Assembly: GCA_001781435.1 (NCBI GenBank)
Contig: MFLV01000023.1
Span: 11,191-49,395, forward strand
DNA length: 38,205 nt
From: Candidatus Kaiserbacteria bacterium RIFCSPLOWO2_01_FULL_51_21
Lineage (GTDB): Bacteria > Patescibacteriota > Minisyncoccia > Phycocordibacterales > 2-01-FULL-51-21
Reading direction: 5' to 3'
The position numbers and the translations under genes are program-made. Positions 5,475 to 35,890 of this stretch are shown piece after piece; the first letter of the stretch is position 1, and every line of letters begins with the position of its first letter. The notes under the pieces were generated by a model that was not told the DNA's origin, did not search any database, and was given only the letters and a program-made list of their open reading frames with translations.

Positions 5475-5503
5475 ATACTACGAAAACAATGAGTGAAAGT
5501 CAA
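5475..5503 (-). promoter_or_regulatory. Promoter of rpsS-rplV-rpsC-...
   Basis: On the minus strand TTGACT (5498-5503) and TAGTAT (5475-5480) are separated by 17 bp. The -35 hexamer directly abuts the end of inverted-repeat element copy 1, whose edge reads ACGGGGTTTGACT. The position 30 nt upstream of rpsS fits a new transcription start after the terminator at 6253-6286. Confidence 0.65.
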
Positions 5504-5569
5504 ACCCCGTAGCGAATTTTGGCGATAGGGTTCCTGCGCTTCACGCGTCGCAAAAATCTACTACAGGGT
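5504..5569. repeat. Inverted-repeat element, copy 1 (66 bp)
   Basis: The left arm 5504-5525 and the reverse complement of the right arm 5548-5569 are near-identical, reading ACCCCGTAGCGAATTTTGG and ACCCTGTAGTAGATTTTTG. The loop is 22 nt. The same two arm types (GTAGTAGATTTT and GTAGTGAATTTT) occur at 24,875-25,014 and 35,689-35,760. This copy is in the opposite orientation to the other two. Its right end contains the TGA stop of the neighbouring gene at 5569-5838. Confidence 0.8.
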
Positions 5570-5838
5570 CAAACGAGAGCCGGCACAATCTTATTGAGAT
5601 TCTTTTTGAATTGCGTAAGCGTACCGCGAGATTTCGCATGGAGAAGTCCGCGAATCATTAGAAGTCCTTCTTCATAGGCGCTTCTGCTTTCGGACCTGCG
5701 CAGAAGCGCAAGCCCGTGATAGGCACGCCCAAGTGAATCCTGGTATTGCTGGAGATTTCCATGGTCGAGGGCAGAGATTGAGCGCACCACGTCAGCGGCA
5801 AGATTGCCGAACTGTAGTGCCGCCACAGGATCCATCAT
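5569..5838 (-). CDS. Hypothetical 89-residue helical protein
   Basis: The family is not recognised. The 89-residue product is predicted from composition to be alpha-helical (alternating Leu/Ala with Arg/Glu, e.g. LGRAYHGLALLRRSESRSAY) and has no membrane segment or cysteine. Its ATG overlaps the TGA of the DUF5674-like gene by 4 nt (5835-5838), so the two are probably translated together and may act together. The stop codon TGA (5569-5571) lies at the edge of inverted-repeat element copy 1, so the true C-terminus may have been changed by insertion of that element. Confidence 0.6.
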   Translation of the reverse strand: MMDPVAALQFGNLAADVVRSISALDHGNLQQYQDSLGRAYHGLALLRRSESRSAYEEGLLMIRGLLHAKSRGTLTQFKKNLNKIVPALV

Positions 5839-10432: not shown

Positions 10433-10515
10433 AGTTTAGCTGTTAGCCGTTAGGTATTAACTTCGTTAGCCATCCAGAATTTCTAATGGCTAAGGCAGCT
10501 AACTGCTAATGAAGC
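10433..10515. repeat. Inverted short-unit spacer repeat (GTTAGC type)
   Basis: The left half is made of TTAGC units (TTTAGCTGTTAGCCGTTAGG, CGTTAGCC). The right half is made of the complementary GCTAA units (GGCTAAGGCAGCTAACTGC, TAATGAAGC). The same arrangement occurs at 17,047-17,168. It fills the gap between tuf and rpsJ. Confidence 0.7.
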
Positions 10516-10518
10516 TGC

Positions 10519-11712
<1,194 letters not shown>

Positions 11713-17047: not shown

Positions 17048-17168
17048 GGGAGCTTCATTAGTTGTTAGCTGCGTTAGCAGTTAGCGTAATACGAAAAATT
17101 GCAAAAGTATATGGATATGCTACCATGCCTTGCTAACGAAGCTAAAAGCTAATTGCTAAAGAAGCTAA
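17047..17168. repeat. Inverted short-unit spacer repeat (GTTAGC type)
   Basis: The left arm has TTAGTTGTTAGCTGCGTTAG and CAGTTAGCG. The right arm has TTGCTAACGAAGCTAAAAGC and TAATTGCTAAAGAAGCTAAT. The ~35-nt middle contains the possible rpmB promoter. Same sequence type as 10,433-10,515. It fills the gap between two divergent genes (M50 protease and rpmB). Confidence 0.7.
17099..17126 (+). promoter_or_regulatory. Possible rpmB promoter
   Basis: TTGCAA (17,099-17,104), 16 bp, TACCAT (17,121-17,126) on the plus strand, in the loop between the two arms of the spacer repeat. Four of six consensus positions in each hexamer. Confidence 0.35.
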
Positions 17169-22584: not shown

Positions 22585-22628
22585 CCAAAACTCAAACTAT
22601 GCGATATATCGCATAGTTTGAGTTTTGG
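22585..22628. terminator. 44-bp perfect palindrome between rnhA and comEC
   Basis: The left half 22,585-22,606 (starting CCAAAACTCAAACTATGC) is the exact reverse complement of 22,607-22,628; the centre is GATATATC, as in the palindrome at 18,319-18,338. It has no unpaired loop. Position after rnhA fits a terminator, but T-runs are poor. Confidence 0.65.
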
Positions 22629-24874: not shown

Positions 24875-25014
24875 TATACCCCGTAGTAGATTTTGGCATT
24901 GTCTCTTCGTTGCGACGGTTATTGTAACAGCGGACAGTGAATTTCATTTCGAGTATAGCTGGAAAGCTTTACTTAGAGACAGGGCAACTATGCCAAAATT
25001 CACTACGGGGTATA
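24875..25014. repeat. Inverted-repeat element, copy 2 (~140 bp)
   Basis: Arms 24,875-24,899 and 24,990-25,014 read, in the same sense, CCCCGTAGTAGATTTTGGC and CCCCGTAGTGAATTTTGGC: complementary except at two internal positions. The stem extends outward through TATA. The 90-nt interior contains further pairing TGTCTCT/AGAGACA (24,900-24,906 with 24,975-24,981). It occupies the whole divergent promoter region of recJ and the HIT gene, and its right edge contains the TATACT -10 box (25,011-25,016). Confidence 0.85.
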
Positions 25015-35688: not shown

Positions 35689-35760
35689 TTGACCCCGTAG
35701 TAGATTTTGGCGATGCGCCGAAGGCGCGGGCATAGCCCTTCGCCAAAATTCACTACCGGA
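35689..35760. repeat. Inverted-repeat element, copy 3 (~70 bp)
   Basis: Left arm 35,691-35,713 (GACCCCGTAGTAGATTTTGG) and right arm 35,740-35,760, which in the same sense reads ATCCGGTAGTGAATTTTGGC. The 26-nt interior has its own hairpin GCGCC/GGCGC (35,715-35,726). Orientation as in copy 2. Confidence 0.82.
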
Positions 35761-35890
35761 TTGACCCCGTTGAGAGTACGCGGGCGCAGTATTTCAATAC
35801 CGATACCATAAGTACCTCACGAGTTGATGAGCACGGTTCTCTGCGCAAAAAATTCACAGCGCACGCGCCCTACTTCTAACGGGGTTGACA
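35761..35890. repeat. Second, related inverted repeat adjoining copy 3
   Basis: Left end TTGACCCCGTTGAGAGTACG (35,761-35,781) and, in the same sense, the reverse complement of the right end (35,866-35,890) TCAACCCCGTTAGAAGTAGG are similar, so the block is an imperfect inverted repeat with ACCCCGTT termini. It shares the ACCCCGT edge with the first family, and TTGACCCCGT occurs directly repeated at its left edge and that of copy 3. The interior (35,782-35,865) shows no gene. Its right edge supplies the -35 of the nusA promoter. Confidence 0.55.

What the first reader, a model, noticed from the sequence alone, without database searches (positions are those of the whole stretch)
24875..25014. 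Family of inverted-repeat elements with asymmetric arms (CCCCGTAGTAGATTTT / CCCCGTAGTGAATTTT)
Three intergenic copies (5504-5569, 24,875-25,014, 35,689-35,760) share ~20-bp arms but differ in loop length (22, 90, 26 nt) and loop sequence. In every copy one arm has GTAGTAGATTTT and the other GTAG(T/C)GAATTTT, so the hairpin keeps the same two-base internal mismatch (TAGA against TGAA). Copy 1 lies in reverse orientation, so the asymmetry tracks the element and not the strand. This points to selection for a bulged stem (protein recognition, like REP or MITE-type elements mobilised in trans) and not to random palindromes. No transposase gene is in the window.
Basis: seen in the sequence. Interest (0 to 1): 0.78.

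Follow-up and report, generated by a model that had tools for sequence, protein, structure and literature searches.

The report
Hairpin transposons linked to GIY-YIG nuclease
Three short hairpins in this tiny-genome bacterium are copies of a mobile DNA element that leaves a 4-base duplication where it lands, and its full-size relatives (about 300 bases, in many related bacteria) carry one gene, a very small GIY-YIG DNA-cutting enzyme that probably moves them: a type of transposable element I could not find described.

Summary
The three hairpins belong to a mobile family with about 15 copies in this 629-kb genome and many more across Paceibacteria. Each copy has a nearly invariant core, GTAGTAGA / TTCACTAC (an A.C mismatch plus a G.T wobble or bulge). 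The rest of the stem differs between copies but stays complementary (117/121 copies against 38 with shuffled partners). Copies are flanked by an exact 4-bp duplication (81/106 against 7 expected; consensus YNNR), and one empty site is shown. Y1 genes are not associated with them.

About 300-bp versions with the same arms carry one ~90-aa GIY-YIG nuclease ORF. Of the 30 closest homologues of that nuclease, picked without regard to hairpins, at least 22 lie between such arms (4 of 310 control windows do). Arm type follows the nuclease tree. Two intact elements in one genome are 93% identical with unrelated flanks, and their ORF is under strong purifying selection (dN/dS about 0.05).

Best reading: tiny autonomous "GIY-YIG hairpin elements", with the window's copies as MITE-like derivatives. 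Nuclease-driven movement is inferred, not shown. The window genome and another high-copy genome now lack this nuclease. No described family fits in the literature I could search.

The parts
5500..5504 (.). target duplication of copy 1, left (TCAAA; 4-bp core TCAA)
   Evidence: direct repeat of 5569-5573; general 4-bp duplication
5505..5568 (-). copy 1: short hairpin element, 64 nt, reverse orientation
   Evidence: CM hit G000:C23:16695-16758 (-), E=6.0e-14
5569..5573 (.). target duplication of copy 1, right (TCAAA)
24875..24878 (.). target duplication of copy 2, left (TATA)
24879..25010 (+). copy 2: long-form hairpin element, 132 nt, between two divergent genes
   Evidence: DNA fold z=-5.7; CM hit E=4.2e-6
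24879..24899 (+). left arm of copy 2, CCCC-GTAGTAGA-TTTTGGCAT
   Evidence: invariant core
24990..25010 (+). right arm of copy 2, ATGCCAAAA-TTCACTAC-GGGG
25011..25014 (.). target duplication of copy 2, right (TATA)
35689..35692 (.). target duplication of copy 3, left (TTGA)
35693..35760 (+). copy 3: short hairpin element, 68 nt, two apical hairpins
   Evidence: best CM hit of the genome, E=2.6e-18; DNA fold z=-6.3
35761..35764 (.). target duplication of copy 3, right (TTGA)

Best explanation
The window's hairpins are non-autonomous (MITE-like) members of a family of very small DNA transposons of Paceibacteria, the GIY-YIG hairpin elements. A full element is about 300 bp: a 4-bp target duplication; a left arm (about 4 variable GC-rich bases, GTAGTAGA, then 7-10 variable bases); one ~90-aa GIY-YIG endonuclease ORF filling the loop; and the complementary right arm ending TTCACTAC. 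SHOWN: the anatomy, the 4-bp duplication, one empty site, within-genome copies, the selection for pairing with a kept mismatch, the co-inheritance of arm type with nuclease clade, and purifying selection on the ORF. INFERRED: the nuclease, a relative of the structure-specific SLX1/UPF0213 group, recognises the folded hairpin (extruded cruciform or single strand at the replication fork) through the mismatched GTAGTAGA/TTCACTAC base, cuts there, and makes a 4-nt staggered cut at a YNNR target. Host polymerase and ligase fill and seal. Copies that lost the ORF keep only the arms and are moved in trans by a resident or passing nuclease. In the window's genome the nuclease has since been lost or was never resident.
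For: (1) 4-bp duplication: 81/106 copies exact against 7.3 with swapped flanks; per-position match .95 at positions 1-4, partial (.5) at position 5.33 or less further out. Empty site TGAAAC in L050 against TGAAA[element]TGAAAC in L063. (2) Pairing selected: 117/121 exact-core copies have complementary inner arms against 38 shuffled, with 49 different 7-mers. Core invariant in 102 distinct copies. (3) ~300-bp versions with the same arms and an ORF (Pfam GIY-YIG E=1.8e-16 and 3.5e-18). (4) 30 nearest GIY-YIG homologues in 384 genomes, hairpins ignored: 22 have a bracketing inverted repeat scoring >=11 against 4/310 displaced windows; arms legible by eye in further ones. (5) Tree: the GTAG-arm nucleases lie in one supported clade (97/96) of 24 rows, 22 with GTAG arms and 2 without; all arm types need 7 changes against 32 shuffled. 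(6) Genomes with a GTAG-clade nuclease more often carry short hairpins (OR 10, p=0.0024). (7) Two intact elements in genome G114: 93% identical, flanks unrelated, both starting at ATG/TATG, dN 0.023 and dS 0.435. (8) Active-site residues invariant across 15 members; nearest solved relatives UPF0213 and SLX1. (9) G111 has both an autonomous element and short copies with the same arms and CATA duplication. (10) Tandem unit = element + one GCTTG.
Against: No experiment. GIY-YIG enzymes are known as hydrolases, not strand-transferases, so the joining step is unexplained. The window genome (92% complete) has only one GIY-YIG gene, and it falls in a clade without arms. G495 (99% complete) has 21 CM hits, a count that can include both strands of one copy, and no nuclease match at E<=1e-8; G020, G483 and G496 also have none. 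No autonomous copy with exactly the window's TTTTGGC stem was found. The 4-bp symmetric YNNR duplication would equally suit an unseen DDE transposase; I did not search for DDE families. The exact-core collection starts from the core sequence, so the invariance of the core is partly by selection (the mismatch-tolerant searches also find it).
Confidence: 0.7

Rival explanations
1. An ordinary MITE family moved by an unseen DDE transposase; the GIY-YIG gene is a passenger that sits in the loop of some copies.
For: Fixed 4-bp symmetric duplication; high-copy genome G495 and the window genome without this nuclease.
Against: No inverted-repeat pair with another gene inside turned up where isolated arms were inspected; arm type follows the nuclease clade; the ORF is under strong purifying selection between copies in one genome; complementary stems of ever different sequence are not needed by an enzyme that binds each end as duplex DNA.
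Confidence: 0.15
2. REP/REPIN-type palindromes moved by a Y1 (RAYT) transposase. They share a GTAG at the foot of a hairpin with an imperfect stem.
For: GTAG-tagged REPs and their RAYTs are a known kind (PMC3733652); the genome has one Y1 gene.
Against: 4-bp target duplication; Y1 absent from G051, G068 and G169 with three to nine copies; Y1 in 91/142 genomes irrespective of the element; the genome's own Y1 gene is surrounded by a different palindrome; GTAG is paired in the stem here, not an unpaired tag.
Confidence: 0.04
3. Homing or intervening-sequence type elements that spread by copying into homologous sites and are tolerated because the RNA hairpin is clipped out or splinted (like 23S rRNA intervening sequences).
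For: One copy lies inside a 16S rRNA gene; published CPR rRNA insertions with GIY-YIG match neither group I nor group II introns, and many are short and ORF-less (PMC11270868); hairpin arms around an ORF resemble intervening sequences.
Against: Copies sit at unrelated sites with different 4-bp duplications, not at one homologous site; elements with unrelated flanks in one genome.
Confidence: 0.06
4. Immobile structural or regulatory hairpins (terminators, mRNA stabilisers) that arose independently.
For: Strong folding, intergenic location of the window copies.
Against: Target duplications, an empty site, tandem arrays, a nested composite present at two sites; copy 2 lies between divergent genes, where no terminator is wanted.
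Confidence: 0.03

Closest known systems
REP / REPIN palindromes with RAYT (Y1) transposases
   Same: Small dispersed imperfect hairpins with GTAG at the foot, moved in trans
   Different: 4-bp target duplication, GTAG paired in the stem, two different arms, no Y1 association; the linked enzyme is GIY-YIG
MITEs (e.g. Correia, RUP, ERIC) of DDE insertion sequences
   Same: Short non-autonomous inverted-repeat elements with a fixed target duplication and longer autonomous relatives
   Different: No DDE gene seen; stem sequence varies freely while pairing is kept; the autonomous form is only ~0.3 kb
GIY-YIG homing endonuclease genes (I-TevI in group I introns, stand-alone seg genes)
   Same: Selfish gene for a GIY-YIG nuclease
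   Different: Bounded by hairpin arms, 4-bp duplication at diverse sites, no intron, ~90 aa (little more than the catalytic domain)
23S rRNA intervening sequences (IVS) and the GIY-YIG insertions of CPR rRNA genes (PMC11270868)
   Same: ORF in the loop of a hairpin; some copies in rRNA genes; the published GIY-YIG rRNA insertions may well be this family
   Different: Dispersed over the genome with target duplications; that paper does not describe arms, duplications or short derivatives outside rRNA in the parts read
Penelope-like retroelements (GIY-YIG plus reverse transcriptase)
   Same: GIY-YIG endonuclease used by a mobile element
   Different: No reverse transcriptase, DNA hairpin ends, tiny size
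Integron attC sites
   Same: Structure kept, sequence free, asymmetric unpaired bases, apical variable part
   Different: No attC core motifs seen, dispersed single copies with duplications, no integrase tested

Membership tests
REP/RAYT (Y1) palindromes | Unpaired GTAG tag 5' of the hairpin | tested here: not met
   GTAG pairs with CTAC in the arms
REP/RAYT (Y1) palindromes | Y1 transposase present with the same repeats at its flanks | tested here: not met
   Own Y1 gene has another palindrome; no Y1 in G051, G068, G169
REP/RAYT (Y1) palindromes | No target duplication | tested here: not met
   81/106 copies with exact 4-bp duplication
DDE-type insertion sequence / MITE | Terminal inverted repeats with fixed-length target duplication | tested here: met
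DDE-type insertion sequence / MITE | Autonomous copy encodes a DDE transposase | tested here: inconclusive
   Longer copies found encode GIY-YIG; DDE families not searched
Group I intron with GIY-YIG endonuclease | Intron RNA fold around the ORF | tested here: not met
   No Rfam intron match in 18 loci including GIY-YIG elements nor in the hairpin loci
GIY-YIG nuclease superfamily | Catalytic domain with Y..YIG, Arg, Glu | tested here: met
   Pfam E 1.8e-16 and 3.5e-18; Y5, Y16, G18, R26, E62 invariant
23S rRNA intervening sequence | Restricted to rRNA genes, IVP four-helix ORF | tested here: not met
   Dispersed, one copy in 16S; ORF is GIY-YIG
Integron attC | R boxes RYYYAAC / GTTRRRY and an integron integrase | not tested
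   No such boxes noticed by eye; integrase not searched
Rfam RNA families | Match to a curated family | tested here: not met
   No element matched

The most novel reading that the evidence does not exclude
A ~90-aa GIY-YIG nuclease acts as the sole transposase of the smallest autonomous DNA transposons known (~0.3 kb). It excises and inserts a folded hairpin by structure-specific cutting with a 4-nt stagger, and a whole superfamily of such elements, each nuclease clade with its own arm sequence, pervades Paceibacteria and has seeded MITE-like hairpins and rRNA insertions.
Probability: 0.45. Interest if true: 0.92.

Novelty: categorically new. Interest (0 to 1): 0.84.

Why it matters
Transposable elements are classed by their enzyme (DDE, HUH/Y1, tyrosine or serine recombinase, reverse transcriptase, Cas1). 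A GIY-YIG nuclease as sole mobiliser of a hairpin-bounded DNA element would add a class and would be among the smallest autonomous elements. It would give a role to one of the commonest but unexplained gene families of CPR genomes and a likely source for the unexplained non-intron insertions in their rRNA genes. The evolving but always paired stem with a fixed mismatch makes the recognition rule directly testable with a 90-aa protein and a 60-nt oligonucleotide.

Tried and rejected
Y1/RAYT mobiliser: rejected. Known RNA family: no element matched. Viral carriers: no exact arm in IMG/VR. Autonomous IS of 1-3 kb: pairs of copies about 1.6 kb apart in G114 looked like one, but their inner sequence is not shared. 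First CM structure string was unbalanced. One protein reference was malformed. Literature searches for MITEs in Patescibacteria and GIY-YIG with CPR, hairpins or transposons gave no description of such elements; the library lacks preprints and most subscription journals.

Full report
OBSERVATION. The three hairpins exist as described and fold much better than shuffled DNA (z -3.5, -5.7, -6.3). The genome (629 kb, 28 contigs, 92% complete) holds about 15 copies: 14 arm matches within two mismatches, 21 within three, and 12 distinct places at E<0.01 with a covariance model, the GTAC-type copies L007, L009 and L012 being additional. There are two sizes. Short copies have a core of about 32-77 nt with up to two small apical hairpins. 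Long copies are 121-141 nt with a richer inner fold; copy 2 of the window is of this kind.

CORE AND STEM. An exact 18-nt left arm occurs in 33 stretches of 85,000 genomes. Nearly all are Paceibacteria/Parcubacteria, and all but three of them (two outside this group, one without a partner arm) have the right arm close by. A looser pattern that demands only GTAGTAGA...TTCACTA found 19 of 142 genomes of the class. In 121 such copies, 117 have complementary inner arms against 38 when partners are shuffled, with 49 different left 7-mers. So pairing is kept while sequence is free, and the A.C mismatch with its G.T neighbour (or a bulged G in the G114 family) is kept although stems around it are perfect. 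That is what selection for a recognised, imperfect hairpin predicts. The core sequence was part of the search, so its invariance alone is weaker evidence.

MOBILITY. The sequence outside the arms is a direct repeat of exactly 4 bp: 81 of 106 copies, against 7.3 when flanks are swapped between copies. Its consensus is YNNR. An empty site is seen: L050 has one TGAAAC where L063 has TGAAA[element]TGAAAC. A copy sits in the loop of another copy, and the composite occurs at two or more sites in G111. Tandem units consist of element plus one duplication (a second array at G481:C20:16517-16786). One copy lies inside a 16S rRNA gene (L052).

NOT Y1. Genomes G051, G068 and G169 carry three to nine copies and no Y1 match; Y1 occurs in 91 of 142 genomes of the class. 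The only Y1 gene of the window's genome is surrounded by another palindrome, ACTTGGAGGCTTAGCCTCCAAGT.

THE NUCLEASE. Looking for wider-spaced arms gave elements of 287-311 nt with the same arms, two of them with clear duplications (CATA, AATG), and one ORF in the loop. The ORF is a GIY-YIG nuclease of about 90 aa (Pfam E 1.8e-16 and 3.5e-18). To test the link without circularity I took the 30 best homologues in 384 genomes by protein alone. Twenty-two have an inverted repeat of score 11 or more bracketing the ORF; of 310 windows displaced by 500-700 bp, four do. The flanks read as GTAGTAGA/TTCACTAC or its reverse in most, with outer CCCC/CCAG/CCCG and often a TATG duplication. Other GIY-YIG clades have other arms, such as CCCGTTAGAG, CCCAGTAACA, CCGCACC, CCCTGTTAAAT. 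A tree of 76 proteins puts all GTAG-arm nucleases in one supported clade (97/96, 24 rows, two without legible arms), and arm types need 7 changes against 32 for shuffled labels. The window genome's single GIY-YIG gene falls in a clade without arms. Short hairpins are commoner in genomes with a GTAG-clade nuclease (odds ratio 10, p=0.0024; two hits judged chance were set aside). In G114 two intact 314-bp elements are 93% identical with unrelated flanks, dN 0.023 and dS 0.435. The nearest solved relatives are UPF0213 proteins and SLX1, a structure-specific nuclease. Residues of the active site are invariant.

MECHANISM. Shown: element boundaries, duplication length, selection on pairing and on the nuclease, co-inheritance of arms and nuclease. 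Inferred: the nuclease binds the folded arms by the mismatched core, cuts at the hairpin foot and staggers the target by 4 nt; host enzymes fill and seal; ORF-less hairpins are moved in trans. The joining step has no precedent I know of for GIY-YIG enzymes.

WEAK POINTS. The window's genome and a few others with up to 21 model matches (G495; matches can count both strands of one copy) lack this nuclease now. Loss after spread is usual for MITEs, but the fact also fits an unseen DDE enzyme, which I did not search for. No autonomous element with the window's own TTTTGGC stem was found.

KNOWN OR NEW. The held literature has no such element. One paper reports that GIY-YIG genes in CPR rRNA insertions belong to neither intron group and that many short ORF-less insertions are uncharacterised (PMC11270868); these may be the same elements. 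I rate the kind as categorically new, conditional on the nuclease being the mobiliser; if it is only cargo, this is a new variant of a MITE.

Noticed in passing
L364, L365, L368, L369, L371, L373 (flanks of the GIY-YIG ORF): Other GIY-YIG genes lie directly before tRNA genes with what looks like a partial duplicate of the tRNA's 5' part on the far side, suggesting another GIY-YIG element type that inserts into tRNA genes.
   Followed up: no
L022 1230-1980 (G000:C27): The genome's only Y1 (RAYT-like) gene is surrounded by copies of ACTTGGAGGCTTAGCCTCCAAGT, and two in-frame copies lie inside its own coding sequence (LRGLASKLR, LGGLASKL).
   Followed up: partly
window 24879-25010; L001, L002, L006, L007: Long-form elements hold two segments whose complements follow in crossing order (TGTCTC..GTTGC....GAGACA..GCAAC); in L007 the first pair is replaced by TATGCCT/AGGCATA, as for a pseudoknot.
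   Followed up: partly
L222, L036, L218 (autonomous elements): The start-codon region CTGATTATGTTC is the reverse complement of the codons for EHNQ inside the ORF (GAACATAATCAG); it may hide the start codon. The stop codon often overlaps the right arm.
   Followed up: no
L139 2209-2524 and G481:C20:16517-16786: Head-to-tail arrays of four elements separated by a single copy of the target duplication.
   Followed up: partly
L052 848-911: A short element lies inside the 16S rRNA gene of a Kaiserbacteria genome.
   Followed up: partly
window 22585-22628: A perfect 44-bp palindrome without a loop, CCAAAACTCAAACTATGCGATA/TATCGCATAGTTTGAGTTTTGG.
   Followed up: no
window 10443-10519 and 17048-17159: Another repeat family rich in GCTAA/TTAGC, inverted, 82-84% complementary over 28-37 nt.
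   Followed up: no
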